The notes under the pieces were generated by a model. That model had not been told where the DNA came from, did not search any database, and worked only from the letters and a program-made list of their open reading frames with translations. Position numbers and translations under genes: made by a program. DNA of 57,020 nucleotides. It comes from Chloroflexota bacterium. GTDB lineage: Bacteria; Chloroflexota; Anaerolineae; Promineifilales; Promineifilaceae. The stretch covers positions 1 through 57,020 of the forward strand of contig JAAEOP010000103.1 of NCBI GenBank assembly GCA_024223125.1. The letters run 5' to 3'. Below, piece after piece: positions 3,322 through 37,021 of this stretch (within the stretch, counting starts at the first letter, position 1; each line of letters starts with the position of its first letter).

Positions 3322-3861
3322 ATGAAACGAACCCAACTGGGACAGAAAGCTCCAGAAATCATATTGCAAACGATGGACGGTCGTTCTCGCGCTCTCAGCG
3401 ATTTTTGGGGCAACGGCCGTTCTGCATTACTTATCTTCTTACGCCACCTGGGCTGAATTCCTTGCCGCGAGCACGTGGCCCAGGTTGTGGCCCACCAGGA
3501 CGAATTCGACAAACTGTACACAAATATCGTCACCATTTCATTTACAGATGAGAGCTATTGGGCGGAAACGTGGCTGCGTGAAACGAACTCCCCATTTCCC
3601 CTTCTCCTTGACCCAACCCGGACTGCCTACCACGCTTATGGTCTGGATTATTCCTTAATGCGTGCCTGGAACGGCCGTACAATTTTCTACTATATTCGTG
3701 CCCTTCTTAGCGGCCGTAAATGGCGTGGCATTCAAGGTGATTCCGGCCAATTAGGCGGCGATTATGTTGTAGATACAGGTGGAATTGTCCGCCTGGTTTA
3801 CCCCAGCCACGATCCCACAGACCGACCGTCTGTTGACCATTTGTTGAGCGAACTAACGTAA
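3322..3861 (+). CDS. SelU/AhpC-TSA_2-like peroxiredoxin, probable selenoprotein (TGA = Sec45)
   Basis: Reading through one in-frame TGA (3454-3456) gives a 179-residue thioredoxin-fold protein. The N-terminal part (GQKAPEIILQTMDG, then ALLIFLRHLG) and the C-terminal part (LLLDPTRTAYHAYGL, GGDYVVDTGG) join in the same frame and fit the AhpC-TSA_2 family (PF13911), which includes eukaryotic selenoprotein U. Family members normally read RHxGCPxCRE at the active site; here it is RHLG-TGA-IPCRE, so the TGA sits exactly on the peroxidatic Cys, giving a UxxC motif. A hairpin of bacterial SECIS geometry follows (3475-3495). The alternative is a Cys-to-stop mutation or sequencing error, but the remaining 134 codons are intact. 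The ribosome-binding site is weak; translation may be coupled to the rhodanese gene 11 nt upstream. Confidence 0.8.
3475..3495 (+). promoter_or_regulatory. Candidate bacterial SECIS element for the SelU-like gene
   Basis: GGCC (3477-3480) pairs with GGCC (3489-3492) around the loop CAGGTTGT; the stem can be extended by G3475 with a bulged U3476, or by GT/AC pairing with a bulged C. The loop begins 24 nt after the TGA and has G within its first bases followed by GU, as SelB-binding SECIS loops do (E. coli fdhF has AGGUCU). The geometry fits; binding is not proven. Confidence 0.6.
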
Positions 3862-15936: not shown

Positions 15937-16038
15937 TGTTTCCTTGTACAAAATAATGGCTAAAATATATACAACGATAAGAAACTGTCAAATGTGACGT
16001 TATTAGCAGGTATGTTCAAGATAAAAGGAGTTCATCAG

Positions 16039-19599: not shown

Positions 19600-19614
19600 T
19601 CGTTCACTCCCCAA

Positions 19615-19675: not shown

Positions 19676-19698
19676 AGGGTTATTAAGGAAGAAAGCGC

Positions 19699-21720
19699 AT
19701 GAGTACAAATCGTGAAGAAAAAGAACGCATTGGCGTTTATGTTTGCCATTGCGGTACCAATATTGCCGGAACGGTAGATGTTGAGGATGTGGCTAACTGG
19801 TCTAAAGAAGTGTTAGAGGATGATGGGGTAGTCATTGCCCGTGATTATAAATTCATGTGTTCCAGTTTGGGACAAGAGTTAATTGAACGGGATATACAGG
19901 AGGAAGGCTTAAGCCGGGTGGTGGTGGCTGCCTGTTCACCCCATCTGCATGAAAAGACGTTCCGTACCGCTTGCGGCCGTGCTGGATTGAACCCGTATTT
20001 GTGTGAGTTGGCTTCTATCCGCGAGCAAGTTTCTTGGGTACACACAGACAAAAAAGCGGCCACGGAAAAGGCGAAAGCGGTGGTTGCCGGCGGTGTGGAA
20101 CGAGTTATTCACAATGAACCATTGGAACCGCTGCATGTGCCCATCCACCCAGATACGCTGGTGGTGGGGGGCGGTATTGCTGGCATTCAGGCGACGTTGG
20201 AACTGGCCGATTCTGGCCATCGCGTATATTTGGTGGAACGGGAACCTTCGATTGGCGGTCATATGGCTCAGTTTGATAAAACCTTCCCTACAATGGATTG
20301 TGCCGCCTGCATCTTGACGCCCAAAATGGTAGATGTGGGCATGCATCCCAACGTAGAATTGCTGACTTGGAGTGAAGTGGAGAAGGTGGATGGGTATGTG
20401 GGCAACTTCACCGTCACCATTCGTAAAAAGCCGCGCTATGTGGACACGAATTTGTGTACGGGCTGCGGCATTTGCTGGGAGAAGTGCCCCAAGCGGGTGA
20501 TTGATGATGAGTTTGAAGCGGGTCTGGGCTACCGCAAAGCGGTGTATACGCCTTTTGCCCAGGCTGTGCCTAAATATCCGGTCATTGACACAGAAAGCTG
20601 TATCTATTTTATGAATGGCAAATGCCGCGCTTGTGAGAAGTTCTGTCCTACGGAAGCGATCCAGTTTGATCAGGAAGAAGAGTATATGACGGTGGAGGTG
20701 GGCAATATTATCCTGGCGACGGGGTTTGATTTGTTTGACGCTCGCCGGGTTCCGCAATATGGCTACGGCCGTTTGGCAAACGTCTTTACGAACCTGGAAT
20801 TTGAACGGATGTGTAATGCGGCCGGGCCAACAAATGGGGAAGTTGTGCTGCGCGATGGCGTCAGTAAACCGGAGTCGGTGGGCATTATTCACTGCGTCGG
20901 CAGCCGCGACCGCAACTATAACAATTACTGTTCTGTCATTTGCTGCATGTCCAGCCTTAAATTTGCCCATCTGGTGAAAGAACGCACTGGCGCCCGTGTG
21001 TACAATTTTTACATCGACATGCGTACTGCCTACAAAGATTACGATGAGTTTTATCAGCGTGTTTTGGAAGAGGGAACTATTTTTGTACGCGGCCGTGTAG
21101 CCGAAGTAACGGATGCAGCCCGACAGGAGCATGAAGAAGGCAAATTGATTATTCAGGTGGAAGATACTTTAGCCGGTAAACAACGTCGTATTCCGTTAGA
21201 TATGGTGGTGCTGTCGGCCGGGTTAGAACCGAAACGAGACGCCAAAGAGGTGGCTCATAAATTTGGTATTTCTTGCAGCGCTAATGGTTGGTTTATTGAA
21301 AAACACCCCAAGTTAGACCCGATAGCGACGATGACGGAAGGTGTTTTTATTGCCGGGGCTGTGCAGGGGCCGAAGGATATTCCCAGCAGTGTGGCTCAGG
21401 GGGCGGCGGCCGCTGCCCGCGTGTTAAGCCGTATTGACAAAGGTGAAATTGAACTGGAACCGGTACGGGCGACGGTGGATACACGCCGCTGCTCTGGCTG
21501 TCGCATCTGCAATGATTTGTGCCCATTTAACGCCATCATTTTCCTTGAAGATGAGATGGTGACAGAAATTAACCATGCGCTGTGTCAGGGGTGTGGCACT
21601 TGTGTGGCTGCCTGCCCGGCGGGGGCGATTAGTGGCAGTGGTTTTAGCAATGAGCAGATTATGTCGCAAATTGAAGGGTTGTTGTTTATTGATCGGCCAC
21701 TTCATGCGTTTGTTAATTAG
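19699..21720 (+). CDS. hdrA: Heterodisulfide reductase subunit A-like FAD iron-sulfur protein
   Basis: The protein has 673 residues. The N-terminal domain starts VYVCHCGTNIAG; the FAD Rossmann motif is GGGIAGIQATLEL (about 158), followed by MDCAACILTPKM. Ferredoxin motifs are CTGCGICWEKCPKR (about 253), a CIYFMNGKCRACEKFCP cluster (about 298), and near the C-terminus CSGCRICNDLCPFNA and CQGCGTCVAACPAGA. All key positions are cysteine, with no TGA. HdrA holds the FAD that splits electrons between ferredoxin and the HdrB acceptor. With MvhD-G-A downstream it makes a hydrogen-linked flavin-based bifurcating complex. Confidence 0.95.
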   Translation: MSTNREEKERIGVYVCHCGTNIAGTVDVEDVANWSKEVLEDDGVVIARDYKFMCSSLGQELIERDIQEEGLSRVVVAACSPHLHEKTFRTACGRAGLNPYLCELASIREQVSWVHTDKKAATEKAKAVVAGGVERVIHNEPLEPLHVPIHPDTLVVGGGIAGIQATLELADSGHRVYLVEREPSIGGHMAQFDKTFPTMDCAACILTPKMVDVGMHPNVELLTWSEVEKVDGYVGNFTVTIRKKPRYVDTNLCTGCGICWEKCPKRVIDDEFEAGLGYRKAVYTPFAQAVPKYPVIDTESCIYFMNGKCRACEKFCPTEAIQFDQEEEYMTVEVGNIILATGFDLFDARRVPQYGYGRLANVFTNLEFERMCNAAGPTNGEVVLRDGVSKPESVGIIHCVGSRDRNYNNYCSVICCMSSLKFAHLVKERTGARVYNFYIDMRTAYKDYDEFYQRVLEEGTIFVRGRVAEVTDAARQEHEEGKLIIQVEDTLAGKQRRIPLDMVVLSAGLEPKRDAKEVAHKFGISCSANGWFIEKHPKLDPIATMTEGVFIAGAVQGPKDIPSSVAQGAAAAARVLSRIDKGEIELEPVRATVDTRRCSGCRICNDLCPFNAIIFLEDEMVTEINHALCQGCGTCVAACPAGAISGSGFSNEQIMSQIEGLLFIDRPLHAFVN

Positions 21721-21782
21721 GGGTTGGAGATTAGGAGATCGGAGAATAAGCGAATCTCCAATCTCTCAATCTCCCAATGGAG
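21718..21782. repeat. Heptamer tandem repeats (AATCTCC / GGAGATT type) between hdrA and mvhD
   Basis: The gap is filled by degenerate 7-bp units such as GGTTGGAGATTAGGAGAT and AATCTCCAATCTCTCAATCT, which also form a weak inverted repeat. Similar units lie at 23272-23285, 25303-25320, 25530-25553, 26197-26215, 35850-35892 and 40709-40745. Confidence 0.7.
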
Positions 21783-21791
21783 AAAGTACAG

Positions 21792-22268
21792 ATGAGCAAA
21801 CAATTTGAACCTGTCATCATCGGCTTTACTTGTAATTGGTGCAGCTACCGGGCGGCCGATTTGGCCGGAACGGCCCGCGTTAAATATCCGCCCAATATTC
21901 GGTTGATTCGGTTGATGTGTTCGGGACGGATTGACCCGACTTTTGTGCTAAAGGCGTTGGTGGGTGGGGCTGACGGGGTGATGATTACGGGCTGCCATCC
22001 GGGTGAGTGTCATTATCTTGAGCAAAACTATAAGGCGTTACGCCGGTATTTGTTGCTGCGGCGCACCATCGGCCAAATGGGAATTGAGCCGGGACGGGTG
22101 AAACTGGTGTGGGCCAGCGCGGCCGAAGGGGTGAAACTAGCGCAAGAGATTGGCAAGTTTGTGGAGGAAATTCGTGCCCTTGGTCCCCTGAATTGGTCTG
22201 AAAATTTAGCGAGCGCTGTACAAAACAGCGTTTTGCTTTACGATATGCCAGAGGAGGTGGCGGCATGA
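21792..22268 (+). CDS. mvhD: MvhD/FrhD-family iron-sulfur linker subunit
   Basis: The protein has 158 residues. The [2Fe-2S] ligands are in FTCNWCSYRAAD (about 12), LMCSGRID (about 41) and GCHPGECHY (about 66). MvhD hands electrons from the hydrogenase to HdrA. In some methanogens the homologue VhuD is a selenoprotein; here every ligand is Cys. ATG at 21792 has GGAG 9 nt upstream. The stop overlaps the next start (ATGA), so stoichiometric synthesis is likely. Confidence 0.93.
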   Translation: MSKQFEPVIIGFTCNWCSYRAADLAGTARVKYPPNIRLIRLMCSGRIDPTFVLKALVGGADGVMITGCHPGECHYLEQNYKALRRYLLLRRTIGQMGIEPGRVKLVWASAAEGVKLAQEIGKFVEEIRALGPLNWSENLASAVQNSVLLYDMPEEVAA

Positions 22269-23275
22269 GTAAGAATGGACAATCTCCTACTGAAAAACCT
22301 AAGTTTGCCATGTATTGGGCGTCTTCCTGCGGCGGCTGTGAAATTGCCGTCCTGAACATTAACGAAAAGATTTTGGATGTGGATGCCAATTTTGAGGTGG
22401 TTTTCTGGCCGGTAGCGATGGACGCTAAGTATAAAGATGTGGAAGCGATGCCGGATAAATCTATTTTGCTGACGTTGTTTAATGGCGGCATTCGCAACAA
22501 AGAAAATGAATATATGGCCCATCTGCTGCGGCAAAAGTCGCAAATTTTGGTGGCTTTTGGTTCCTGCGCTACCGAAGGCTGTATTCCTGGATTGGCGAAT
22601 CTTTCCTCGATGGATGAAATATTCTACGCTGCTTATGAAAGTGTGAGTACGGATAATCTTGAGCATTTACGGCCGTCTTTCAGCTACCAGGTTCCCGAAG
22701 GCACATTGACAATTCCAGTATTTAACCCAGTGTTGCGGACGTTGGATCAGGTGGTGGATGTAGATTATTTTATGCCCGGTTGTCCGCCTGAATCGCACCA
22801 GATTGGAGCTGTGATTGACCTGGTGATTCAGGTATTACGCGGCGAAGCGGAACTGCCGCCAAAGGGATCGATCATCGGGGCCGGCGATTCGACGGTGTGT
22901 GAGGAATGTCCCCGCACCCGGAACGTGAAGAAGATTAAGAAGTTAGTTCGCATTCATGAAATGGAAGAGGTAGACCCGGAATTGTGCCTGCTGGAACAGG
23001 GGATTTTGTGTAATGGGCCGGCGACGCGCAGCGGTTGCAGCGCCTTGTGCCCACAGGTGGGTGCGGCGTGTATAGGCTGCTATGGCCCGGCGGCAGGCGT
23101 TATAGATTATGGGGCACGGATGATGACGGCCGTTGCCTCCGTTATTGACAGCAATGACCCCGACGAAATTGAAGATATTCTGGATGGAATCCCCGATCCG
23201 GCGGGATCGTTTTACCGTTTTAGTTTGGCGCATTCACTACTGCACGCGGGGAAACCGGCGTTGGTGGGAGATTAG
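22265..23275 (+). CDS. mvhG: Group 3c [NiFe] hydrogenase small subunit
   Basis: The protein has 336 residues with no signal peptide, so it is cytoplasmic. Cluster ligands: ASSCGGCEIAV (proximal, about 19), GSCATEGCIPG, MPGCPPES, and C-terminal ferredoxin-like cysteines from CEECPRTRN through GCSALCPQVGAACIGCYGP. It transfers electrons from the NiFe site to MvhD. It lies between mvhD (4-nt overlap) and the large subunit (16 nt gap). Confidence 0.93.
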   Translation: MSKNGQSPTEKPKFAMYWASSCGGCEIAVLNINEKILDVDANFEVVFWPVAMDAKYKDVEAMPDKSILLTLFNGGIRNKENEYMAHLLRQKSQILVAFGSCATEGCIPGLANLSSMDEIFYAAYESVSTDNLEHLRPSFSYQVPEGTLTIPVFNPVLRTLDQVVDVDYFMPGCPPESHQIGAVIDLVIQVLRGEAELPPKGSIIGAGDSTVCEECPRTRNVKKIKKLVRIHEMEEVDPELCLLEQGILCNGPATRSGCSALCPQVGAACIGCYGPAAGVIDYGARMMTAVASVIDSNDPDEIEDILDGIPDPAGSFYRFSLAHSLLHAGKPALVGD

Positions 23276-23291
23276 AGATTGGAGATGAAAA

Positions 23292-24758
23292 ATGACAAGA
23301 ATCACAATAGATCCCATCACTCGTTTAGAGGGACATGGCAAGATTGAGATTTTTTTGGATGAAGATGGGGAAGTGGCTAACACTTATTTCCAGATTCCTG
23401 AACTGCGCGGGTTTGAACGATTTTGTGTCGGCCGTCCGGTAGAAGAGATGCCGCTGCTGACGAACCGTATTTGCGGCGTTTGTCCAGAGGCGCACCATAT
23501 GGCGGCCGCTAAAGCGGCCGATGCGGTGTATGGCGTTGACCCACCTTCGGCCGCTAAAAAATTACGCGAACTACTGTACATGGGCTTTTATTTTACCGAC
23601 CATACGACTCATTTTTATGCCCTAGGCGGGCCAGACTTTGTGATGGGGCCAGATGCGCCGGTAGCGGAACGAAACATTCTGGGCGTGATTCACAAAGTGG
23701 GGTTGGAGGTTGGCGGCAAAGTGATTCAGGCGCGAAAGGTGGGACACACGATTATTGAGATGTTAGGCGGCCGTAAAGTCCATCCCTGCACCTCGATTCC
23801 TGGCGGCGTGACCAAAGGTCTCGTTGAAGAGGAGCGGCAAGAGATTGAAAAGATGGGGCGTTGGGGGATTGATTTTGCCCAGTTTAGCTTGCAACTATTT
23901 AGCGATCTGGTGCTGGGCAATCAGATGTACCTGGATTTGATCTTGGGTGACATCTATACCCATCACACCTATTATATGGGCTTAGTGGACGCGCAGAATC
24001 GGGTGAATTTTTATGACGGCCGTGTGGCTATTGTCGGCCCTGAAGGAAAACGCCTGGGGACCTATGCTCCCCATGAATACAATGATTGGATTGCCGAACA
24101 TGTGGAGCCGTGGACGTATTTGAAGTTTCCTTACTTGAAAAAGGTAGGCTGGAAAGGGTTTGTGGATGGTAAGGATTCGGGCGTGTATATGGCTACGCCA
24201 TTGTCCCGGTTGAATGTGGCCGCTGGTATGGCGACGCCGCTGGCGCAGGAGCAGTATGAGAAGTTCTACGACACGTTGGGGGGCAAGCCAGTACACCAAC
24301 GACTAGCTACCCATTGGGCGCGGCTGATTGAATTGTTGTACGCGGCCGAACGGCTGGTGGAACTGGCCACTGATCCTGAAATTACCTCGCCCCACATCCA
24401 CACAGTTCCCACACAAACACCGACGGAAGGGGTGGGCATTGTAGAAGCGCCACGCGGGACGCTGACGCACCATTATTGGACGGATGAACGAGGCATCTTG
24501 ACAAAGGTTAACCTGATTGTGGGCACGACAAACAATTACGCACCCATTAGCATGTCCATTAAGAAGGCGGCCAAAAGTTTGATTCACAAAGGAACTGTTG
24601 TGAACGAGGGGTTGCTGAATATGGTAGAGATGGCTTTCCGCGCTTATGACCCTTGCTTTGGTTGCGCTACTCACTCGCTACCTGGGCAGATGCCGTTGGA
24701 GGTGGCGATCCGGGATGCGGATGGGGAGACGGTTGAGGTTTTGCGGCAGTTTTGTTAG
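23292..24758 (+). CDS. mvhA: Group 3c [NiFe] hydrogenase large subunit
   Basis: The protein has 488 residues. It starts ITIDPITRLEGHGKIEIF. The N-terminal nickel motif L1 is NRICGVCPEAHH (about 55) and the C-terminal motif L2 is DPCFGCATH (about 455); all four ligands are Cys. A 27-residue tail after the L2 His would be removed by the protease encoded next. With MvhD/G and HdrABC it oxidises or produces H2. GGAGATG lies just before the ATG. Confidence 0.95.
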   Translation: MTRITIDPITRLEGHGKIEIFLDEDGEVANTYFQIPELRGFERFCVGRPVEEMPLLTNRICGVCPEAHHMAAAKAADAVYGVDPPSAAKKLRELLYMGFYFTDHTTHFYALGGPDFVMGPDAPVAERNILGVIHKVGLEVGGKVIQARKVGHTIIEMLGGRKVHPCTSIPGGVTKGLVEEERQEIEKMGRWGIDFAQFSLQLFSDLVLGNQMYLDLILGDIYTHHTYYMGLVDAQNRVNFYDGRVAIVGPEGKRLGTYAPHEYNDWIAEHVEPWTYLKFPYLKKVGWKGFVDGKDSGVYMATPLSRLNVAAGMATPLAQEQYEKFYDTLGGKPVHQRLATHWARLIELLYAAERLVELATDPEITSPHIHTVPTQTPTEGVGIVEAPRGTLTHHYWTDERGILTKVNLIVGTTNNYAPISMSIKKAAKSLIHKGTVVNEGLLNMVEMAFRAYDPCFGCATHSLPGQMPLEVAIRDADGETVEVLRQFC

Positions 24759-26221: not shown

Positions 26222-26716
26222 TCAGCGTTTTACGAAAGCGTACCCCCACAGGCTCAACTCCTCTATAATCTTTCCCACCAACACATCAACTTGAGCAGAT
26301 ACAATTGGCGAGAGATCTAACCCCACGCTCAACAATGCTGGCTGAACCCCCCAAAGTGTCACATTGTGCGGATATAAATTCTTAAGTTTGGCGGCAAACA
26401 ACATATCATTGACGCCGATTTGATGTGAAGACATCTTCATAGAAAGGAAGGCTGGTACTTCATCCCCTTCCATTCGTAGCAGCGTTCCTGGCTCCTTGCC
26501 CATCTCTACCGCATCAATGATGAGTAAATTTTCTACCCCCTCCAAATAATAAAGGAGGTCCAATCCCAACGTACCTCCGTCCAGGATTTGAACCTCCTTT
26601 GGCAAATTATGTGTCTTGACCAGACGTTGAATGACATGTATGCCTACCCCTTCGTCAGTCAGGAGCAGGTTGCCAACGCCCAGAATAAGCGTTTTAACGG
26701 ACCTTTTTTCTAGCAA
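26222..26716 (-). CDS. hybD: Hydrogenase maturation protease (HybD-like)
   Basis: The protein has 164 residues beginning with TTG (no ATG is available before the conserved core): LILGVGNLLLTDEGVGIHVIQRL, LLIIDAVEMG (about 66) and SSHQIGVNDML (about 97, the metal-binding His). It overlaps the end of the large subunit gene by 7 nt, so it is translationally coupled and should process that subunit. It is the last gene of the HybOABCD-type operon. Confidence 0.88.
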   Translation of the reverse strand: MLEKRSVKTLILGVGNLLLTDEGVGIHVIQRLVKTHNLPKEVQILDGGTLGLDLLYYLEGVENLLIIDAVEMGKEPGTLLRMEGDEVPAFLSMKMSSHQIGVNDMLFAAKLKNLYPHNVTLWGVQPALLSVGLDLSPIVSAQVDVLVGKIIEELSLWGYAFVKR

Positions 26717-28464
26717 TGGTTTTTCATTCCCAAATGAAATGTTTGCAATGGGCCGGTAAACCCAGATGTAGCCTGCAACTTAACCTGATTTATCTCGCGC
26801 CCCGTAACGTCCAAAATGTGAACGCCACATGCCATACAAGGATCAAAGGAATGTATTGTACGCAGTACTTCCAGCGGCATTTCTGGATCGGCGATGGGCG
26901 TACCGATGAGCGACGCTTCATAAGGTCCTATTTGCCCTGTAGCATCTCGCGGGGAACAATTCCAGGTGCTGGGAACCACACATTGGTAATTTTCGATCTT
27001 CTTGTCTTTGATATGGATCCAATGACCCAATGCGCCGCGTGGCGCTTCGGTAAAGCCCCAACCCTTTGCTTCGGTCGGCCAGTTTTCAGGATCCCAGGCG
27101 CTTGTCTCGTGAACCTGTAGATCACCGCTTTTTATGCCGGCGGCCAGTTCGTCAGTCCATACGGATAACTGTTCGGCCGTTACCACCGCTTCAATACAGC
27201 GCGCGGCCGTGCGTCCCAGCGTCGAGAATAAAACTTCAGGGCCAACGCCTAAAGTTTCTAACACGGAATTGATAACCGCCTGCACCCGTTCATGTCCAGC
27301 GGCATAGGCAACCAACATCCGGGCTAACGGTCCCACTTCCATCGCATGTTCTCCCAAACGAGGCGCTTTCATCCAGGTATATTTATTGTCCGTTTCCAAA
27401 AATTCATAGGGGGGTTTTGGCCCGGTATAGTTTGGCCTGGTCTCGCCATCCCAGGGATGTTTTCCTTTGCTTTCGTCGTCGTATTTATACCATGAATGGG
27501 TGACATACTCGGAAATGTCATTCTGATCCAGCGGATGAATCGTACTCAAGTCGCCGTTCAAAATGAATCCTTGTGGCAGCCAGAAATCATCGTTGGCGTT
27601 GGGAAAATCGCCATAAGACAAAAAGTTGTTAACCCCGCCGCCAAGACCGGCCCACTCCAGGTAAAACGGGGCCACAGCCAGCACATCCGGCAGGTAGACT
27701 TGATTCACAAATTTCTGGGCTTTGGCGAAGATTGTGTAAAGTTGGGCAATCGTGTCAGCGTTAATGGCCGCCTGACTGTTGGGATCAATCGGCGAGGCCA
27801 TCCCGCCCACCAGGTATGTTTGCAAATGCGGATTTTTGCCGCCCAGAAGAGCATGAGCATGAATCAGTTCGCGCTGCCAATCAAGCGCTTCCAAGTAGTG
27901 GGCAACGGCCATCAAGTTTGCCTCTGGCGGTAGTTTGTAAGCCGAATGTCCCCAATAGGCGTTGGCAAAAGGCCCTAATTGCCCTGTATTGACATAAGCA
28001 GTCAGCTTTTCCTTGACCCCCTTAAAATACCCCGGGCTGGAATTAGGCCAATCGGAGATGGATTGCGCCAGGGTAGACGTGGCGTCCGGATCAGCGTCTA
28101 AAGCGCTGACAATATCTACCCAATCAAGCGCGTGCAGATGATAAAAATGAACGACATGATCCTGAACGTATTGGATTCCTTCGATAATATTACGCAAAAT
28201 ACGCGCATTGTTGGGGACTGTAACCCCCAGAGCATCCTCGACTGCTCGCACGGAGCAGAGTGCGTGTACTGTCGTTCAAACCCCGCATATGCGCTGCGTT
28301 ATCGCCCATGCTTCGCGAGGGTCGCGCCCTTTGAGGATGAGTTCGATCCCCCGCCACATGGTGCTGGAACTCCAGGCATCGGTTACGACGCCATCTTCCA
28401 CTTGAACCTCGATACGCAAGTGGCCTTCAATACGTGTGATTGGATCAATTACGATTTTTGCCAT
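26710..28464 (-). CDS. hybC: Group 1c-like [NiFe] hydrogenase large subunit, probable selenoprotein (TGA = Sec63 in motif L1)
   Basis: Reading one in-frame TGA (28276-28278) as selenocysteine gives a 584-residue large subunit: [20 protein letters not shown] at the start, L1 [20 protein letters not shown] at about 58-75, L2 DPCMACGVH near the C-terminus. The TGA replaces the second Cys of RxCGxC, in other hydrogenases a cysteine bridging Ni and Fe. Known [NiFeSe] enzymes carry Sec in L2 instead. A SECIS-like hairpin follows 17 nt later. Both sides of the TGA are intact and in frame, so decay is unlikely, though a Cys-to-stop error cannot be excluded. A 35-residue tail follows the L2 His. The start has AAAGGAG upstream. 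Without recoding only a 62-residue stub would be made. Confidence 0.82.
28242..28258 (-). promoter_or_regulatory. Candidate bacterial SECIS element in the hydrogenase large-subunit gene
   Basis: On the coding strand CTGCTC-CGTGC-GAGCAG forms a perfect 6-bp stem with a 5-nt loop containing G at position 2 followed by U. The stem begins 17 nt and the loop 23 nt after the TGA, inside the 16-37 nt range seen for bacterial SECIS elements. Bases below the stem form a U/U mismatch. It codes for LCSVRAV, so the hairpin is superimposed on conserved protein sequence. Confidence 0.65.
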
Positions 28465-28517: not shown

Positions 28518-29654
28518 TCATTCATTGTAAATAGGATCATCCTTGAAAAGCCTGAAATAGCGCACAACAATACCGTAAGCCAGAAAGCCGCCAGACAGCA
28601 AACCGATGGTAATCATAATCTCTATCCAGTGAGGCGAATAAACGATTGGCGACGGCTCGGCTAAACCTATCCAACTGATAATTAATCTGTTGATGAATGT
28701 GCCGATGAGGACAAAAACGCCAGCCCAAAAAGGCCCGGCTGAATGCCCTCCTAACTTGGACAAGAGAATTATTAACGGAATAAAGATGCCAATGATAAGT
28801 TCCAACCAGACGAGTATGCCAAAGGCGTCTGGTTGAAACAGTAAATCTACTTTGCCGGCGCCCATCCAATCGCCAACTTTGACCGCCAGATATAATCCCA
28901 ACGCGATACTCATCGCTTGCCCAATGCGGCGGAAAAACTCTCTGTCTATTGGATATCCCTTTCTTTTCCAGATGAGAGTAACGGCAACGGCCGTCGCAGC
29001 TAATCCCGTGTAAATTGCCTGGAGAAAGAAAATAAGCGGTAGAGCAGGCGTCCACCACAAGGGATGCAGTTTGTGACGCATAATCAAAAACATGGAACCC
29101 AAGGAAGATTGGTGCAACGCCGAGAGGATAATGCCCGCCCCAGCGATAATGATAATAAAGCGATTGATAAAGCGGATAGGACGCTCGTAGCCCCATTTTT
29201 CTAAAAAGGTGGGGGCAATCTCAATGACAAGAATGATCGTGTAAAAAGTAACGCTCAAGCTGACTTCTTCAAGGAAAGAATGGAGGTTTATGTATTGTGG
29301 GTTGAGAATATTGTAAAATTGATGCCAGCGTCCAATATCCAGGAACAGCAGGATACCGACGATAGCGTACCCTAGAAAACCGGCGAGAATAGACGGCCGT
29401 AACGCCGTCGTATAATGGTCGCGACCATAAAAATGGGTGATGAAAGAAATAGTGAAAGCTGCCCCGGCCACCGGAATGAGGAAGTAATCAATTGTAATCC
29501 ACATGCCCCAGGGATAATGGTCGGTCAGGTTTGTCGTTGGCCCCAACCCCACTACCAGACGGTAGATAGAAAGCGCTACAGCGAACAGGGTTAATGCCAG
29601 CAAGGGGTAAAAGCTAATGGGTATCTTTTTTCTGGTTTGGGTTACGGCCGTCAT
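28518..29654 (-). CDS. hybB: HybB/NrfD-type integral membrane subunit
   Basis: The protein has 378 residues and about ten membrane helices. The first helix follows [16 protein letters not shown]; the NrfD-type features [15 protein letters not shown] (about 40) and [12 protein letters not shown] (about 200) are present. This family passes electrons from the ferredoxin subunit to menaquinone without heme. ATG at 29654 overlaps the hybA stop (ATGA) and has GGAGG upstream. It anchors the hydrogenase to the membrane. Confidence 0.92.
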
Positions 29655-30514
29655 GGTTGCCTCCATCCTTCCCGTTGAGCGATAAAGCGAATACCTGCCA
29701 GTAAAAGCGTCCCGCCAATTAGAATAGACGGAACGAAGACCTCGCTGGTACGCTCACTTAACTGGGGAACTGGTTCGTCGCCCAGGTCTGGCAAACCCAT
29801 CTCCTCAAAAGGAACGGAGGAGAGGTAAAGAACCGATGTGCCGCCGGCGTCATCCTGACCATAAATTTTATTAACATAACTGTCCGGTTTTTCTTCTAAT
29901 CGGCCTTCCGCTTCTGTCAATAAATCGCCACGCCGTCCCCAGGTAAGCGCACCGGTGGGACATCTTTCGGCGCAAGCCGGACCGTCGCCCACTTCAAGGC
30001 GATCATCACAAAGGGTACACTTCGTAATGACGGGCAACACTTCATCCCACTCGAAGCGGGGAATGTGAAAGGGGCAGGTATACATGCAATAACGGCAGCC
30101 GATGCAGCGGTCAGCGTCATAGGTAACCGGCCCGGTGGCTGACTTTTCCAGCGCGGAAACCGGACATCCGCTAACGCAAGCCGGGTCAATGCAGTGCATA
30201 CATTGCCGTTTGATAAAACTGGGATTGTCTTTTTCCTCGCGTAGTAGAATGAGCGACCATGTATCCGCAGAAAGCTCACCGGGAGCATCATAACGGCCGC
30301 TGGGGTCCTTCTCGACGGCCGTGTTATTCCATTGGCGACATGCAGTTGTGCATGCGTTGCAGCCGGTACACATTGTAGCGTCATACAACATGGATACATG
30401 ATCGCTGGCGTCTACACTCTCCGAAGCCGCTGCTACTCCTGCAGGAGCTAATAGAGCGGCACCTACACCGGCGCCAGCGGTTTTGAGAAATTCTCTACGG
30501 CTGATACATGACAT
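29651..30514 (-). CDS. hybA: HybA-type ferredoxin subunit with Tat signal
   Basis: The protein has 287 residues. A Tat signal starts SRREFLKTAGAGVGAALLAPAG; four [4Fe-4S] cluster motifs follow: CTGCNACTTACRQW (about 48), CMHCIDPACVSGCP (about 110), CIGCRYCMYTCPFH (about 142) and CTLCDDR...CAERCPTGAL (about 170). A C-terminal hydrophobic helix (FVPSILIGGTLLLAGIRFI) anchors it on the outer face of the membrane. It relays electrons from the small subunit to HybB. Confidence 0.93.
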   Translation of the reverse strand: MSCISRREFLKTAGAGVGAALLAPAGVAAASESVDASDHVSMLYDATMCTGCNACTTACRQWNNTAVEKDPSGRYDAPGELSADTWSLILLREEKDNPSFIKRQCMHCIDPACVSGCPVSALEKSATGPVTYDADRCIGCRYCMYTCPFHIPRFEWDEVLPVITKCTLCDDRLEVGDGPACAERCPTGALTWGRRGDLLTEAEGRLEEKPDSYVNKIYGQDDAGGTSVLYLSSVPFEEMGLPDLGDEPVPQLSERTSEVFVPSILIGGTLLLAGIRFIAQREGWRQP

Positions 30515-30523: not shown

Positions 30524-31645
30524 CTATTCTTCTGCAGCGACGCTATCTACTTCTTCATCATGCAGGTCTGGCTTGGAAAGTTGATAATAAGCTGCCACGC
30601 CAGCACCGCCAACTGCCAGTCCAGCCGCTCCGCCAATCACCGCCGCGCTTGCCGGGGCAACGGTTTGCGCCGGTTGTTGCACCGGTGCATAAGAAGTCGG
30701 CGGGGTGACATCGTGTAGTTCGATGACATTGTACGCTCCCAATTCCCAGAAATCCGGTTGGGTACAACCGAGACAACCGTGACCCGATTTTATGGGCCAG
30801 CTAACCCCATCATTCCAACGAGAAACAGGACAATTGGCAAATGTCATTGGCCCTTTGCAACCCATCTCATACAAGCACCAACCCTGGCGATGCCCAATAT
30901 CTCCCCACTGTTTCACAAATTCACCGGCGTCAAAATGGCCGCGTCGTTCGCAATTGTCGTGAATTTTCTGACCATAAGCGAAGAGGGGACGGTTCAGTTC
31001 ATCCATCGCCGGCAGTTCTGCAAATGTGAGGTAGTGGACTATCGTCGCTGTTAAGTTGACGACATTGACGGAGCAACCAGCCAAATTTATGACGGGTTTA
31101 TCTTTCACAATATCCATGACAGAGACCGCGCCAGTAGGATTGGGGCTGGCTTTGGGCAGTCCGCCATATGTAGCGCAGCTACCTAGAGCAATCACGGCCG
31201 CAGCATTAGCGGCCGCCTCTTGCAAATGGTCTATGGCTGTACGGCCGCCAATGCAGCAGTAAACGCCGTCATCGGCCGTAGGAATAGAACCCTCAACCAC
31301 AAGCAAGTATCCGCCAGCGTCAATTGTTTGCGCTTTGGCCGCTTCTGCTTGATGACCAGCGGCAGCCATGATTGTTTCATGATAATCTACCGAAAGAATA
31401 TCCAACACGATTTCCTCTACACCGGGTCGGGAGGCTCGCAGAAAGGATTCGGTGCAACCGGCACAATCTTGAAATTCTAACCAAATAACTGGGGTGCGGG
31501 CGGGTTCTTGTAAAGCGCTGGCAATTTGTTTTGTGAAGGAATGCGACAATGCCAACGTGCCCGCCATTACTGTGCAAAATTTGAGGAACTCACGGCGGGA
31601 TATTCCTCGCTCTGTCACAGTTTTTTGTACATCAAAAACGGTCAT
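30524..31645 (-). CDS. hybO: Periplasmic-type [NiFe] hydrogenase small subunit with Tat signal
   Basis: The protein has 373 residues. The Tat motif SRREFLKFCTVMAG (about 15) indicates export of the folded heterodimer. Cluster ligands: FQDCAGCTESFL (about 58), a GSCATYGG block (about 160), LAGCSVN (about 198), the distal-cluster HxxCxxxxxFDAG-like segment (about 237), and GCKGPMTFANCP to GHGCLGCTQPDF (about 265-310). A C-terminal Gly/Ala-rich helix (about 340-358) probably anchors it. AAAGGAGG lies before the ATG. First gene of the operon. Confidence 0.93.
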   Translation of the reverse strand: MTVFDVQKTVTERGISRREFLKFCTVMAGTLALSHSFTKQIASALQEPARTPVIWLEFQDCAGCTESFLRASRPGVEEIVLDILSVDYHETIMAAAGHQAEAAKAQTIDAGGYLLVVEGSIPTADDGVYCCIGGRTAIDHLQEAAANAAAVIALGSCATYGGLPKASPNPTGAVSVMDIVKDKPVINLAGCSVNVVNLTATIVHYLTFAELPAMDELNRPLFAYGQKIHDNCERRGHFDAGEFVKQWGDIGHRQGWCLYEMGCKGPMTFANCPVSRWNDGVSWPIKSGHGCLGCTQPDFWELGAYNVIELHDVTPPTSYAPVQQPAQTVAPASAAVIGGAAGLAVGGAGVAAYYQLSKPDLHDEEVDSVAAEE

Positions 31646-32352: not shown

Positions 32353-32409
32353 TGATTGATGCAAGCTACCAACCACTATCCGCCAACCACTACTTACAGG
32401 AGTTTTCCC

Positions 32410-33072
32410 ATGAACAAACGCATCCCCATTGTAGAAAATATTCTCAATGCCAATGAAAATCAGGCCGCAGAAAACCGAGAGCTTCTTGATGCCCATCATG
32501 TGTTAGGTATCAATGTGATGGCTTCGCCGGGGGCGGGTAAAACCAGCATTATTTTACGCACGATTGAATCTCTGGCTCCGTATTTAACGGTTGGTGTGGT
32601 GGAAGGGGACACGGCCGCTGTAACCATTGACGCCGACAAAATTGCCCTGGCCGGAATGCCGGCCGTACAGATTAACACCGGCGGTCAATGTCATTTGGAC
32701 GCTCCTATGCTGGGCAACGCTTTGCTAAAAATGCCCTTGGAAGATATAGATTTGCTCATTGTGGAAAATGTAGGTAATTTGGTTTGCCCGGCCGCGTTTA
32801 CATTGGGAACCCATTTTAATGTTGTTGTTGCCAGCTTGCCGGAAGGGGATGATAAGCCGTACAAATACCCCAACATTTATCGCCATATTGACGCTCTTGT
32901 TTTGAATAAGATTGATCTGCTGCCTTATCTTGATTTTGATCTGGCATATTTTCAAGAAGGTATTGAACTGCTCAACCCAGAGGTGACATTTTTTACGGTG
33001 TCCTGTAAGACGGGCGCGGGGATTGAACGTTGGACAGATTGGCTGCTGGCGCGGGTAATACATGGCAGTTAA
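32410..33072 (+). CDS. hypB: Hydrogenase nickel-insertion GTPase HypB
   Basis: The protein has 220 residues. Walker A MASPGAGKTS (about 36), the GDTAAVTIDADKI block, QINTGGQCHLD metal site, VENVGNLVCP and NKIDLLPY complete the G domain. No His-rich nickel-storage tail is present. ATG at 32410 has AGGAG 8 nt upstream. Confidence 0.95.
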   Translation: MNKRIPIVENILNANENQAAENRELLDAHHVLGINVMASPGAGKTSIILRTIESLAPYLTVGVVEGDTAAVTIDADKIALAGMPAVQINTGGQCHLDAPMLGNALLKMPLEDIDLLIVENVGNLVCPAAFTLGTHFNVVVASLPEGDDKPYKYPNIYRHIDALVLNKIDLLPYLDFDLAYFQEGIELLNPEVTFFTVSCKTGAGIERWTDWLLARVIHGS

Positions 33073-33088
33073 AACTGCACCCACATCT

Positions 33089-33138
33089 GCAAAGGCGGCC
33101 TATGCCGACTGGAACCAGACCGCGTAGGCGGCCTTTGC
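33089..33138. repeat. Inverted repeat between hypB and hypF
   Basis: GCAAAGGCGGCCTATGC (33089-33105) and GCGTAGGCGGCCTTTGC (33122-33138) pair with two mismatches and a 16-nt loop. A second small palindrome, GCGATT-TT-AATCGC, follows at about 33150. The pair fills the hypB-hypF gap and would form a strong RNA hairpin. Confidence 0.6.
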
Positions 33139-33179
33139 CACCGTTGCGGCGATTTTAATCGCGGCACTGGAAAATCTTG

Positions 33180-35537
33180 ATGATGGCTAATGATACCGGA
33201 CAGGCAATTCATATAACGGGGGTGGTGCAGGGGGTGGGGTTTCGGCCGTTTGTGTATGGATTGGCCCAGCGGTATCAGCTGACTGGCTGGGTGCGGAACA
33301 GTTCGGCCGGGGTGGATATTGCTGTGGATGGTTCGGCCGCTACATTACACGCTTTTACGTCTGACTTGCAAACAACGCTGCCTCCGCTGGCCCGCATTGA
33401 CACTTTTGAGATTTTTACCCGTCCGGCCAATGGTTTTACCTGCTTTGAAATTATTCATTCAGAGCCAATTGCCGGAGCCTTTCAACCCATCTCGCCAGAC
33501 ATTTCTGTTTGCCCAGATTGTTTGCGTGAATTGTTTAATCCTGACGACGGCCGTTACCATTACCCCTTCATCAACTGCACCAACTGTGGTCCTCGCTTTA
33601 CCATTATCCAGGATATTCCCTATGATCGGCCGCAAACGACGATGGCGTCTTTTCCTATGTGCCCAGATTGCCAGGCTGAATATGAGAATCCGTTAGATAG
33701 ACGGTTTCACGCGCAGCCGGCAGCTTGTGCGGTTTGTGGGCCGGCGGTTTGGTTAGTGAACTGCGAGCAGTGTTCTGTATTCAGTGATAACTGGGAGGCT
33801 ATACGGGCTGCGCGGCGAATTTTGGTTGAGGGGGGGATTTTGGCGGTGAAGGGATTAGGCGGGTTTCATTTAGCGTGTGATGGGACGAACGAGACGGCCG
33901 TAGCCGAACTGCGACGACGTAAATTGCGAGTAGACAAACCGTTTGCGATGATGGCGGCGGATGTGGAAACAGCCCAGCGATATTGTTTTGTTAATAAAGC
34001 TGAACGGGAACTGCTCACCAGCCGAGAACGGCCGATTGTCCTGCTGCGCCGCCGGCCAAATTGTACCCTCTCCCCCGAAGTAGCTCCTCGACAAAACCAT
34101 TTGGGGATCATGCTGCCATATACCCCGCTACATTACCTGCTGTTGACCCAATCTCCAACCTCCAATCTCCAATCTCCTGCCCTGGTTATGACCAGTGGCA
34201 ATATCAGCGAAGAACCCATCGCCTACCGCAATGATGAGGCTTTAGAACGACTGTCAAACCTGGCCGACGCTTTCTTATTGCACAACCGGGACATCCATGT
34301 ACGCTGTGATGATTCCGTCATGCGCGTAATCTCTCAATCTCCCAATCTCCCAATCTCCTCCTATCCAATCCGCCGTTCACGAGGATATGCGCCTAACCCC
34401 ATCAAATTACACCAATCGCGGCCGTCTGTTTTGGCGACCGGTGCAGAGTTAAAGAATGTTTTCTGTCTCACCCGCGACGCTTACGCTTTTATGAGCCACC
34501 ATATTGGCGACCTGGAAAATTATGAGACGCTGCGTTCTTTTGAAGAGGGAATTGATCATTTTGAGCGGCTCTTTCGTATCCAACCAGAAATTATCGCCTA
34601 TGACAAACATCCCAACTACCTGGCGACGCGGTATGCGTTGGAACGGGCGAAACGGGAGGGTATTCCGGCCGTCGGCGTGCAGCATCACCATGCTCATATT
34701 GCCGCCTGCATGGCGGAACATGGGTTGGCGGGTGAACGGCCGCTCATTGGTGCAGCGCTGGATGGGACGGGTTATGGCGACGATGGAACTATTTGGGGCG
34801 GCGAGTTTTTGGTGGCGGATTATGGAGGGTATTCACGGCCGTATCACCTTCAACCCATTCCTTTACCTGGTGGGGACACGGCCGTGCGCCAACCGTGGCG
34901 TATTGCTCTATCATATCTGTATCAAGCGGGCATTGGGTGGGATGAAGATTTGCCGCCGATTCGGTTTTCAGTGAGCAATATTCAGTCTTCAGTTTTCAGT
35001 GAGCAGTTATCAGTTGTCGGACAGCAGTTGAAAAGTGGGTTGAATGCGCCGTTGAGTTCTGGTATGGGGCGATTGTTTGATGGTGTAGCCGCGTTAATTG
35101 GGGTGCGGCAAACGGTGAATTATGAAGCGCAGGCGGCCGTTGAGTTGGAGGCGTTGGTGGATGAGATGGAAACGGCCGTTTACCCCTTCACAATCGAAAA
35201 CGGCATCATCAATCCGGCTCCTATATTTAGCCAAATTGTAACTGAGATGCGGAAGGGAGTGAGTACGGCCGTTATTGCCGCTCGTTTTCATAATACAGTG
35301 GTGGAGATGGTAACGGCCGTGTGTCGGCGTATTCGTCAGGAAACCAGTTTGAATGAAGTCGCTCTCAGCGGTGGCGTCTGGCAAAACATGACCTTGTTGC
35401 AGCGTACTATTCCTAAACTGCAAGCGGCCGGATTCACTGTCTACTGGCATCAAACTGTGCCTGCTAATGATGGCGGATTGGCTTTGGGGCAGGCGATGAT
35501 TGCTATGACAACAACGGATGAAGGAAGAAACGGATAA
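33180..35537 (+). CDS. hypF: Carbamoyltransferase HypF
   Basis: The protein has 785 residues. N-terminal acylphosphatase domain (GVVQGVGFRPFVYGLA, about 13), two Cys4 zinc fingers (CPDCLREL...NCTNCGPRF, CPDCQAEY...ACAVCGP, about 105-180), YrdC-like domain (about 200-390, GILAVKGLGGFHLACD), Kae1-like carbamoyl transferase domain with VQHHHAHIAACMAEH (about 500) and ALSGGVWQN near the end. It makes the cyanide ligands of the NiFe site. At four points heptamer-type DNA repeats are incorporated in frame (33765-33795, 34147-34178, 34328-34360, 34973-35030), all in loops between domains. Confidence 0.95.
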   Translation: MMANDTGQAIHITGVVQGVGFRPFVYGLAQRYQLTGWVRNSSAGVDIAVDGSAATLHAFTSDLQTTLPPLARIDTFEIFTRPANGFTCFEIIHSEPIAGAFQPISPDISVCPDCLRELFNPDDGRYHYPFINCTNCGPRFTIIQDIPYDRPQTTMASFPMCPDCQAEYENPLDRRFHAQPAACAVCGPAVWLVNCEQCSVFSDNWEAIRAARRILVEGGILAVKGLGGFHLACDGTNETAVAELRRRKLRVDKPFAMMAADVETAQRYCFVNKAERELLTSRERPIVLLRRRPNCTLSPEVAPRQNHLGIMLPYTPLHYLLLTQSPTSNLQSPALVMTSGNISEEPIAYRNDEALERLSNLADAFLLHNRDIHVRCDDSVMRVISQSPNLPISSYPIRRSRGYAPNPIKLHQSRPSVLATGAELKNVFCLTRDAYAFMSHHIGDLENYETLRSFEEGIDHFERLFRIQPEIIAYDKHPNYLATRYALERAKREGIPAVGVQHHHAHIAACMAEHGLAGERPLIGAALDGTGYGDDGTIWGGEFLVADYGGYSRPYHLQPIPLPGGDTAVRQPWRIALSYLYQAGIGWDEDLPPIRFSVSNIQSSVFSEQLSVVGQQLKSGLNAPLSSGMGRLFDGVAALIGVRQTVNYEAQAAVELEALVDEMETAVYPFTIENGIINPAPIFSQIVTEMRKGVSTAVIAARFHNTVVEMVTAVCRRIRQETSLNEVALSGGVWQNMTLLQRTIPKLQAAGFTVYWHQTVPANDGGLALGQAMIAMTTTDEGRNG

Positions 35538-35602
35538 TGATGCTAGTGGCTGGTGATTTGTACTACCCACTAGCCACCAGTCACCATTTACAAGGAGTTA
35601 TT

Positions 35603-35860
35603 ATGTGCTTGGGCGTTCCCGGAAAAATAATTGAACGGCATGAGAGTAACGGTTTGCCGATGGGCAAAATTGATTTTGGCGGCACGGTGCGGGAAGCGTG
35701 TTTGTCCTATGTACCAGAAGCACAGGTAGGCGACTACACCGTCATCCATGTTGGTTTTGCTATCAGCCTCTTGAGTGAGGAAGAAGCCCAGGCCACCCTG
35801 GACATGCTGCGCGAAATTGTGAATTTGGAAGAGGAGATTGGGCCGGAAATAAGAGATTAG
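35603..35860 (+). CDS. hypC: Hydrogenase assembly chaperone HypC
   Basis: The protein has 85 residues starting MCLGVPGKII; Cys2 is essential and fixes the start. AAGGAG lies 7 nt upstream. HypC carries the Fe(CN)2CO unit together with HypD. Confidence 0.95.
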   Translation: MCLGVPGKIIERHESNGLPMGKIDFGGTVREACLSYVPEAQVGDYTVIHVGFAISLLSEEEAQATLDMLREIVNLEEEIGPEIRD

Positions 35861-35902
35861 AGATTGGGAGATTTGTTCAATCTCCCAATCTCAAAGGACG
35901 CC

Positions 35903-37021
35903 ATGATGAAATACGTGACTGAATACCGCGACGCTGAACTGGTACAGGCTGTTCTGCGCGAAATTGGACAGACGGTGACACGGCCGTGGACACTCATGGA
36001 AATCTGTGGCGGACAAACACACGCCATTGTGCGCCACGGTCTCGACCAACTGCTGCCCGATGAAGTGGAACTGGTACATGGCCCTGGCTGTCCCGTCTGT
36101 GTGACGCCGCTAGAATTGATTGACAAAGCGTTAGCCATTGCCATCCGTTCCGATGTTATTTTCACTTCCTACGGAGACATGCTGCGCGTACCCGGCAGCG
36201 TCCAGGATTTATTTTCCATTCGGGCCAACGGCGGCGACGTGCGCGTAGTCTATTCGCCGCTGGATGCTGTCAAAATCGCTCAAGAGAATCCAGATAAAGA
36301 GGTTGTCTTTTTTGCCATTGGTTTTGAGACGACAGCTCCGGCCAACGCGATGAGTGTTTTACAGGCCCAGGTGTTAGGGGTGTTCAATTTCAGCGTTTTG
36401 GTTTCGCATGTTTGTGTGCCGCCGGCCATGCACGCTATTTTGGGATCGTCGGCCAACCGGGTACAGGGTTTTTTGGCGGCCGGACATGTATGCGCGGTGA
36501 TGGGTTATTGGGAATATCCACTCATCGCCGAACAATACCAGACACCGGTTGTGGTAACTGGTTTTGAACCGTTGGACATTGTGCAGGGTATTTTGGAGGC
36601 AGTACGTTTGTTGGAGGCAGGTGAAGTGAAAGTGAGTAACGCTTATCAGCGGGCGGTTACTTATGAAGGGAATAGACCGGCACAGTCAGTGATTGAGCAA
36701 GTGTTTGAACTGCGAGATCGTAAATGGCGCGGTATTGGTCTGATTCCGCGAAGTGGCTGGGGGCTGCGGCCAGAATTTACCGAATTTGATGCCGAAACCC
36801 GTTTTGATGTAGGCGGTATTGCCTCGGAGGAGTCGTCGTTGTGCATTGCCGGGCAGATTTTGCAGGGGCTGAAGAAGCCGCATGATTGTCCGGCGTTTGG
36901 CAACCAATGCACGCCGGAATCGCCATTGGGGGCTACTATGGTTTCGGCGGAGGGGGCTTGTGCGGCGTATTATCGTTACGGCCGTCATTTGGTTTTGGAA
37001 GAAGCAGAATCGGAGAAATAA
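35903..37021 (+). CDS. hypD: Hydrogenase Fe-ligand assembly protein HypD
   Basis: The protein has 372 residues. Signature motifs: [12 protein letters not shown] (about 32), [11 protein letters not shown] (about 60), [14 protein letters not shown] (about 139) and C-terminal [4Fe-4S] cysteines in [23 protein letters not shown] and GACAAYY. AAAGGA precedes the double ATG at 35903/35906. hypE does not follow, so HypE must be encoded elsewhere. Confidence 0.95.

What the first reader, a model, noticed from the sequence alone, without database searches (positions are those of the whole stretch)
28242..28464. [NiFe] hydrogenase with selenocysteine in the N-terminal (L1) nickel motif
Seen: one in-frame TGA (28276-28278) splits an otherwise intact HybC-type large subunit exactly at the second Cys of RxCGxC (RICGV-U-TTVH), and a 6-bp stem with a GU-containing 5-nt loop starts 17 nt downstream. 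Known: natural [NiFeSe] hydrogenases (Desulfovibrio, methanogen Vhu/Fru) carry Sec at the terminal Cys of the C-terminal L2 motif. Here L2 is plain DPCMAC. Inference: Sec would replace a Ni-Fe bridging thiolate, a position that to my knowledge is not described in a natural enzyme. A second TGA/SECIS gene in the same window (3322-3861) makes a coincidental nonsense mutation less likely.
Basis: partly seen in the sequence, partly recalled or inferred. Interest (0 to 1): 0.95.

Follow-up and report, generated by a model that had tools for sequence, protein, structure and literature searches.

The report
Hydrogenase with selenium at unexpected ligand
This gene very probably encodes a hydrogen-using enzyme that carries selenocysteine at a nickel ligand where natural selenium had not, as far as we could find, been reported; relatives in several bacterial groups share it, many with two selenocysteines.

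Summary
TGA at 28276-28278 replaces the second Cys of the L1 nickel motif (RICGV-U-TTVH) in an otherwise intact group 1 [NiFe] hydrogenase large subunit; L2 is plain DPCMAC. It is not a chance nonsense mutation. Among 175 distinct homologous genes read at DNA level (window included), 101 have in-frame TGA at this codon (never TAA or TAG), 76 of them also at the first L1 Cys, none at the first alone. They come from Chloroflexota, Nitrospirota and a few MAGs labelled as proteobacterial. A fixed hairpin with compensatory changes follows the UGA: in subfamily A either hairpin form is complete in 73 of 83 Sec genes and 7 of 72 Cys genes. Codons on both sides are under purifying selection. tRNA-Sec or SelB was found in 38 of 40 genomes tested for both. 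Sec and Cys forms are mixed on the tree. A 2026 catalogue of 119 prokaryotic selenoprotein families lists Sec hydrogenase large subunits only as UxxC. Not shown: selenium in a protein; sel genes of the window's own genome, which is not held.

The parts
26710..28464 (-). [NiFe] hydrogenase group 1 large subunit, 584 residues when UGA63 is read through
   Evidence: PDB relatives include E. coli Hyd-1 and Hyd-2
28276..28278 (-). in-frame TGA at the second Cys of L1 (residue 63), proposed selenocysteine
   Evidence: same codon TGA in 101 of 175 genes
28285..28287 (-). first L1 Cys codon (residue 60), TGC here, TGA in 76 of 175 genes
28242..28258 (-). SECIS-like hairpin CTGCTC-CGTGC-GAGCAG, 17 nt after the UGA, apical loop 23 nt after it
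26827..26844 (-). L2 motif DPCMAC (residues 541-546), both Cys kept
   Evidence: all 101 Sec genes have DPC..C
28518..29666 (-). HybB/NrfD-like membrane subunit
   Evidence: NF008133, E 8e-68, below its equivalog cut-off
29651..30514 (-). HybA-like iron-sulfur subunit
   Evidence: NF008134, over cut-off
30524..31645 (-). hydrogenase small subunit with Tat signal
   Evidence: TIGR00391 and TIGR01409, over cut-off
26222..26716 (-). HyaD/HybD-family maturation protease
   Evidence: TIGR00140, over cut-off
32356..37021 (+). maturation genes: CobW/HypB/UreG-family protein (32356-33072), HypF (33177-35537), HypD (35864-37021)
   Evidence: Pfam
3322..3861 (+). second probable selenoprotein gene: SelL-related redox protein, TGA 3454-3456 (FLRHLG-U-IPC)

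Best explanation
The gene encodes the catalytic subunit of a Tat-exported, Hyb-like respiratory [NiFe] hydrogenase in which UGA63 is decoded as selenocysteine by SelB and tRNA-Sec, directed by the hairpin at 28258-28242. Selenium then replaces sulfur at the second L1 ligand, the bridging thiolate between Ni and Fe (assignment recalled from known structures). The window holds the single-Sec form (C..U) of a family whose most frequent Sec form in the sample has Sec at both L1 positions (U..U), where one downstream hairpin would serve both UGAs. The likely benefit, inferred, is resistance to, or fast recovery from, oxidation at L1: an S-oxygenated bridging cysteine has been proposed for the unready Ni-A state, and Cys75 of a known [NiFeSe] enzyme was found oxidised (PMC7324405, passages; that this Cys75 lies in L1 is recalled); seleno-oxides are easier to reduce (recalled). 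Shown: codon, conservation, hairpin, selection, machinery in relatives. Inferred: Sec insertion, ligand role, benefit.
For: TGA exactly at the L1 Cys codon in 101 of 175 distinct genes; codon 2 is TGA 101, TGC 60, TGT 14, and no TAA or TAG occurs at either position. Class 1 hairpin in 45 of 83 subfamily-A Sec genes against 0 of 72 Cys genes; either hairpin class 73 of 83 against 7 of 72; three pairs change on both sides. Expected class 1 under synonymous shuffling 1.2, seen 28 of 42. Median dN/dS 0.14 upstream (131 pairs) and 0.11 downstream (104 pairs) of the TGA. tRNA-Sec of at least 60 bits in 36 of 40 genomes of the Sec loci and at E<=1e-10 in 47 of 57 further carriers; SelB domain in 35 of 40 (it rang in 1 of 14 control genomes, E. 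coli). TGA also terminates 31 of 101 Sec genes and the window's HybA, HybB and protease genes. 28 of 120 listed database relatives are gene calls that start just after L1.
Against: No protein or selenium evidence. The window's genome is not held. tRNA-Sec is also common in genomes chosen for the Cys form (30 of 40, one of which, that of L063, also carries a UU gene; 17 of 29; 31 of 40, one of them the UU carrier G272), so it does not discriminate. Neither tRNA-Sec nor SelB was found for two of 40 carriers, those of L016 and L031; 10 of 57 later carriers lacked tRNA-Sec. Folding energy alone is unremarkable (mean z -1.0 UU, -1.7 CU, -0.3 CC), and a generic bSECIS scan separates poorly (49 of 74 UU against 25 of 72 CC). 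Fisher's test (4e-16) ignores kinship. Engineered Sec at each of the four Cys of E. coli Hyd-1 lowered H2 oxidation (PMC9961374, passages), so the benefit is not obvious.
Confidence: 0.92

Rival explanations
1. Pseudogene or sequencing error: the TGA is a nonsense mutation or a base-call error in a normal Cys hydrogenase gene.
For: Single TGAs do arise in genes and assemblies; the window gene alone could not exclude it.
Against: The same TGA occurs in 101 of 175 homologous genes from many studies, always TGA; dN/dS is low on both sides; the nearest database relative (P0003, 94% identical) is also a gene call starting after L1.
Confidence: 0.02
2. UGA is read as Cys or another residue by a suppressor or variant tRNA, not as Sec.
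For: The position is Cys in 74 of 175 relatives, so decoding as Cys would be functional. No search for a variant tRNA was made.
Against: TGA also terminates 31 of 101 of these genes and window neighbours, so decoding must depend on context; a covarying hairpin sits at SECIS distance; tRNA-Sec and SelB are present in most carriers.
Confidence: 0.03
3. The UGA is a regulated stop: the downstream ORF is made as a separate, truncated protein with another role, and read-through is not the main product.
For: Gene callers start the ORF after L1 at in-frame ATG or GTG codons.
Against: The truncated form lacks both L1 ligands yet keeps L2; the upstream codons are under purifying selection in the same frame; 38 of 39 Sec loci examined have the maturation protease and 37 of 39 a small subunit on the held DNA, none with an internal stop in the aligned parts.
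Confidence: 0.03

Closest known systems
[NiFeSe] hydrogenases (Desulfovibrio/Desulfomicrobium HysA; methanogen VhuA/VhuU, FruA)
   Same: Sec as a ligand of the NiFe site, encoded by UGA; in bacteria a SECIS directly downstream (PMC4730141, passages).
   Different: There Sec sits in the UxxC motif (L2); here L2 is all Cys and Sec sits in L1, at the second or at both positions. The window protein misses the HysA model cut-off (416.9 against 780 bits).
Group 1 [NiFe] uptake hydrogenases (E. coli Hyd-1/Hyd-2, Salmonella Hyd-5, A. vinosum; the last name recalled for PDB 3myr)
   Same: Large subunit homologous over nearly its whole length; HybA-, HybB-like, small-subunit and protease neighbours.
   Different: L1 Cys codon(s) replaced by UGA followed by a SECIS-like hairpin.
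Engineered Cys-to-Sec variants of E. coli Hyd-1 (Evans et al. 2021, itself not held; known from passages of PMC11212049 and PMC9961374)
   Same: Sec placed at each of the four Ni-ligating cysteines, the L1 ones included.
   Different: Made in the laboratory; here the substitution is natural and often double.
UxxU selenoproteins (Prx-like, FmdB-family, metal-binding; PMC13188914 Table 1)
   Same: Two Sec spaced by two residues.
   Different: Not hydrogenases.

Membership tests
Bacterial selenoprotein gene | In-frame UGA at a position that is Cys in homologues | tested here: met
   101 of 175 genes TGA, 74 Cys codons at codon 63
Bacterial selenoprotein gene | bSECIS: 3-9 nt loop, 4-16 bp stem, G in first two loop positions, loop 16-37 nt after UGA, MFE <= -7.5 kcal/mol (PMC13188914) | tested here: met
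   window: 6 bp, loop CGUGC, loop starts 23 nt after UGA, -8.2 kcal/mol over 27 nt
Bacterial selenoprotein gene | Sec machinery in the genome | tested here: inconclusive
   window genome not held; in genomes of the Sec loci 36 of 40 tRNA-Sec and 35 of 40 SelB
Bacterial selenoprotein gene | Sec present in the protein | not testable with these tools
   needs mass spectrometry or 75Se labelling
Known [NiFeSe] hydrogenase | Sec in the L2 motif (UxxC) | tested here: not met
   DPCMAC here; DPC..C in all 101 Sec genes
Group 1 [NiFe] hydrogenase, Hyb-like | L1 RxCGxC and L2 DPCxxC ligands | tested here: inconclusive
   L2 met; L1 met only if UGA is read as Sec or Cys
Group 1 [NiFe] hydrogenase, Hyb-like | Tat-exported small subunit, Fe-S and membrane partners, maturation protease | tested here: met
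   (HybB-like subunit below its equivalog cut-off); HydDB subgroup itself not tested

The most novel reading that the evidence does not exclude
A widespread, unrecognised class of hydrogenases in which selenium replaces sulfur at L1, at the bridging ligand alone or at both L1 ligands ([NiFeSe2] sites), present in two subfamilies (about 50% identical), with one SECIS serving two UGAs six bases apart and with repeated Sec-Cys switching in which, in 175 genes, Sec at the first position is never seen without Sec at the second.
Probability: 0.85. Interest if true: 0.92.

Novelty: new variant of a known kind. Interest (0 to 1): 0.87.

Why it matters
The natural Sec-containing hydrogenase large subunits named in the sources seen carry Sec in the UxxC (L2) motif. 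Sec at L1, and double Sec, would put selenium at the Ni-Fe bridge itself and give nature's own version of an experiment so far done by engineering. The close Cys, single-Sec and double-Sec relatives are a ready-made comparison for asking what selenium does for H2 catalysis and O2 damage. It also means that such hydrogenases are called as truncated genes in databases (28 of 120 and 21 of 120 listed relatives), so H2 metabolism in Nitrospirota and Chloroflexota may be misread.

Tried and rejected
Chance nonsense mutation, sequencing error, recoding by another tRNA and regulated truncation were considered and set aside for the reasons given under the rivals.

Weak or uninformative tests, as they came out: tRNA-Sec presence does not separate Sec from Cys genomes (36 of 40 against 30 of 40; 47 of 57 against 17 of 29; 31 of 40, a set of mostly Cys Chloroflexota genomes with G272 and with G091, whose partial second match has an unread TGA). 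At E<=0.001 the tRNA-Sec model rang in all 14 control genomes, so 60 bits or 1e-10 was used after seeing the scores; at 1e-10 it rang in 2 of 14. In one search only 7 of the 29 genomes had their L1 codons read (all Cys); three (G635, G658, G587) had one TGA listed that was not examined. Folding energy against synonymous shuffles is only mildly low. A generic bSECIS scan found stems of at least 6 bp in 49 of 74 UU, 7 of 8 CU and 25 of 72 CC genes of subfamily A. The direction of Sec-Cys change depends on the assumed cost of gaining Sec. Rfam at gathering thresholds found only one tRNA in the window. The viral-contig scan found nothing; all 140 plasmid records with a match are under 60% identical.

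Rows dropped or not read: six duplicate genes (L082, L089, L113, L117, L128, L139); L008 gave no L1 codon because of a run of N; L163 was missed by the first pattern and added as UU. Of 59 genomes with a match the 30 best places were read, of 108 seventy places (30 plus 40 fetched). In the tree, Cys loci above L080 with odd numbers, L082, L107 and all of L111-L180 are absent, and 36 of the 120 proteins were used. A stop listed upstream in L010, L011 and L082 is seen before the ATG in the printed start; those in L111, L145 (one each) and L178 (three) were not examined. The SelL-related copy in L183 matched in two pieces in different frames.

No structure prediction was run: homology to solved enzymes fixes the L1 and L2 positions.

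Full report
WHAT IS THERE. On the minus strand of the window the frame 28464-26710 encodes a complete group 1 [NiFe] hydrogenase large subunit with one in-frame TGA at 28276-28278 (codon 63), exactly at the second Cys of the L1 motif: [17 protein letters not shown]2 is DPCMAC. Solved relatives matched over nearly the whole length include PDB 3myr, Salmonella-type Hyd-1/Hyd-5 (4c3o), E. coli Hyd-1 and Hyd-2 (organism names for 3myr and 4c3o recalled). The operon runs small subunit with Tat signal, HybA-like, HybB-like, large subunit, HybD-family protease; CobW/HypB-family, HypF and HypD genes follow on the other strand. This is the anatomy of an exported, membrane-linked respiratory hydrogenase (inference from family knowledge). 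None of the 12 NCBIfam models listed for the large subunit reached its cut-off.

RECURRENCE. A protein search scored 8000 relatives and listed 120; 28 of the 120 are gene calls of 495-528 residues that begin just after L1, as gene callers do when a stop lies in L1. In 79 of these the L1 codons could be read (L008 has a run of N): 33 loci have TGA at both L1 Cys codons (UU), 6 have TGA only at the second (CU), one of the UU loci (L030) also holds a second hydrogenase gene of CU type, and 40 have Cys at both (CC). Searches of 400 and 295 genomes of the phyla of carriers G009 and G012 found relatives in 59 and 108 genomes; 30 and 70 places were read. After six duplicates were dropped, 175 distinct genes stood: 76 UU, 25 CU (the window among them), 74 CC, and no gene with Sec at the first position only. 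At codon 2 the counts are TGA 101, TGC 60, TGT 14; at codon 1 TGA 76, TGC 83, TGT 16; TAA and TAG never occur although the search pattern would have caught them. All 101 Sec genes keep DPC..C at L2. The set was gathered by homology to the window protein and its truncated relatives, best matches first, so the proportions describe this neighbourhood, not hydrogenases in general. The small subunit and the maturation protease lie near the gene in 37 and 38 of 39 Sec loci, without internal stops in the aligned parts.

TWO SUBFAMILIES. Twenty genes form a second subfamily (at least 65% identical to the CU gene of L030, the next relatives at 52%): 17 CU, 1 UU, 2 CC. A search with the L030 gene listed 120 of 8000 scored relatives, 21 of them truncated and 99 full-length with Cys at L1. 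Whether Sec at L1 arose twice was not tested.

SECIS. In the window the hairpin CTGCTC-CGTGC-GAGCAG starts 17 nt after the UGA. It meets the bacterial SECIS model as printed in PMC13188914 section 5: loop of 3-9 nt, stem of 4-16 bp, G among the first two loop bases, loop 16-37 nt from the UGA (here 23; from the first UGA of UU genes it would be 32, by counting), energy at most -7.5 kcal/mol (here -8.2 over 27 nt). In subfamily A the same 6-bp helix at the same columns (class 1) is complete in 45 of 83 Sec genes and 0 of 72 Cys genes; a second form with a bulge (class 2) is complete in 28 of 83 and 7 of 72; one or the other in 73 of 83 and 7 of 72. Three pairs change on both sides: columns 21-35 are A-T 24, T-A 12, G-C 8 and T-G 1; 22-34 G-C 37 and C-G 8; 23-33 C-G 42 and T-A 3 (the 45 class 1 genes). 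The loop reads xGTGx in 82 of 83 Sec genes and 26 of 72 Cys genes, and the Arg codon there is AGA or CGA in 77 of 83 Sec genes, against CGC, CGG or CGT in 57 of 72 Cys genes. Shuffling synonymous codons with each gene's own usage gives 1.2 expected class 1 helices where 28 of 42 were seen, in the first 42 Sec genes; class 2 1.4 expected, 9 seen; in 68 Cys genes 0.3 and 2.6 expected, 0 and 7 seen. Less favourable: energies alone are only mildly low, and a generic SECIS scan separates poorly. Subfamily B has its own hairpins, stems of at least 6 bp in 18 of 18 Sec genes with 6.4 expected, that of L152 at another place.

SELECTION AND CODE. Between the first 42 Sec genes the median dN/dS is 0.14 for 55 codons before the TGA (131 pairs with upstream dS under 1.5) and 0.11 for 90 codons after it (104 of these pairs): both halves are under selection as protein. 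TGA is a normal terminator in these organisms: 31 of 101 Sec genes end in TGA, as do the window's HybA, HybB and protease genes.

MACHINERY. Of the 40 genomes of the Sec loci (39 with TGA read, plus L008), 36 have a tRNA-Sec of at least 60 bits, the other four at most 48.1; 35 of 40 have the SelB winged-helix domain; 38 of 40 have one or both, the exceptions being the genomes of L016 and L031. Of 57 more carriers, 47 have tRNA-Sec at E<=1e-10, as has G272, carrier of L081. Genomes chosen for the Cys form often have tRNA-Sec too (30 of 40; 17 of 29), so this is a needed condition mostly met, not a discriminator. The window's genome is not held. The window carries a second probable selenoprotein gene: a SelL-related protein with TGA at 3454-3456, at a codon that is also TGA in L181, L182 and L183 from the genomes of L010 and L011; the other 18 of 20 carriers searched had no match.

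EVOLUTION. A quick maximum-likelihood tree of 132 rows with the two L1 columns masked needs at least 14 changes among UU, CU and CC; the labels are clustered but mixed, and the window sits with P0003 (truncated, 95% identical) in a set of 17 rows that holds UU, CU, CC and truncated genes. Rooted on Geobacter-type Cys genes, and without L030's CU gene, the direction depends on the cost set for gaining Sec: several gains at equal cost, one origin and 20 losses at cost 3, a Sec root at cost 5. L007, with both Cys, keeps five of the six class 1 pairs by my reading, is the one Cys gene with G-C at columns 22-34, and looks like a former Sec gene.

HOW IT MOST LIKELY WORKS. SelB with Sec-tRNA binds the hairpin and inserts Sec at UGA63 (inferred from the family evidence). 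The second L1 Cys is a bridging ligand between Ni and Fe and the first a terminal Ni ligand (recalled). The absence of genes with Sec at the first position alone suggests that the bridging position is where Se matters most, or is lost last. [quoted passage not shown] Engineered Sec in E. coli Hyd-1 lowered H2 oxidation at every position and raised O2 tolerance at the position used by natural [NiFeSe] enzymes (PMC9961374, passages; PMC11212049, passages), so the natural enzymes would have to be adapted around L1. This part is inference.

WHAT IS KNOWN. PMC13188914 (2026; section 5, section 7 parts 1-2 of 3, and passages seen) catalogues 119 prokaryotic selenoprotein families; [quoted passage not shown] PMC4730141 (passages) describes the C-terminal type. 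Eight searches of the held open-access library showed no report of Sec at L1 in nature in the listings and passages seen (several listings were capped); subscription papers and preprints were not searched.

VERDICT. Probably a real selenoprotein and a new variant of the [NiFe(Se)] hydrogenases. Confidence 0.92 for Sec at L1; the mechanism of benefit is a guess worth testing.

Noticed in passing
window 17903-24758 (+): HdrC-, HdrB-, HdrA-, MvhD-, MvhG- and MvhA-like genes form a heterodisulfide-reductase-linked hydrogenase cluster; its MvhA has Cys only at L1 (RICGVC) and L2 (DPCFGC) (the first two and MvhG named from Pfam domains and order).
   Followed up: partly
L030:2062-3765 and 6001-7707: Two neighbouring L1-Sec hydrogenase genes of different subfamilies, one CU and one UU, in one Nitrospirota MAG.
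   Followed up: partly
L007:964-1030: A Cys-Cys gene in a Bacillota MAG that keeps five of six class 1 hairpin pairs and a Cys codon at the hairpin position; looks like a fossil SECIS.
   Followed up: partly
window 3322-3861 (+): SelL-related selenoprotein candidate with UxxC (LG-U-IPC); TGA at the same codon in three relatives.
   Followed up: yes
window 28255-28257 (residue 70 of the large subunit): The residue before SVR is Cys, Ser or Ala in subfamily-A Sec genes (TGC 14, AGC 30, Ala codons 39 of 83) but Ala or Thr in 70 of 72 Cys genes; the hairpin seems to dictate the amino acid.
   Followed up: partly
window 14416-15951 (-): MTTB-family methyltransferase (511 aa, no internal stop) next to an FAD oxidoreductase/GcvT-like gene.
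   Followed up: no
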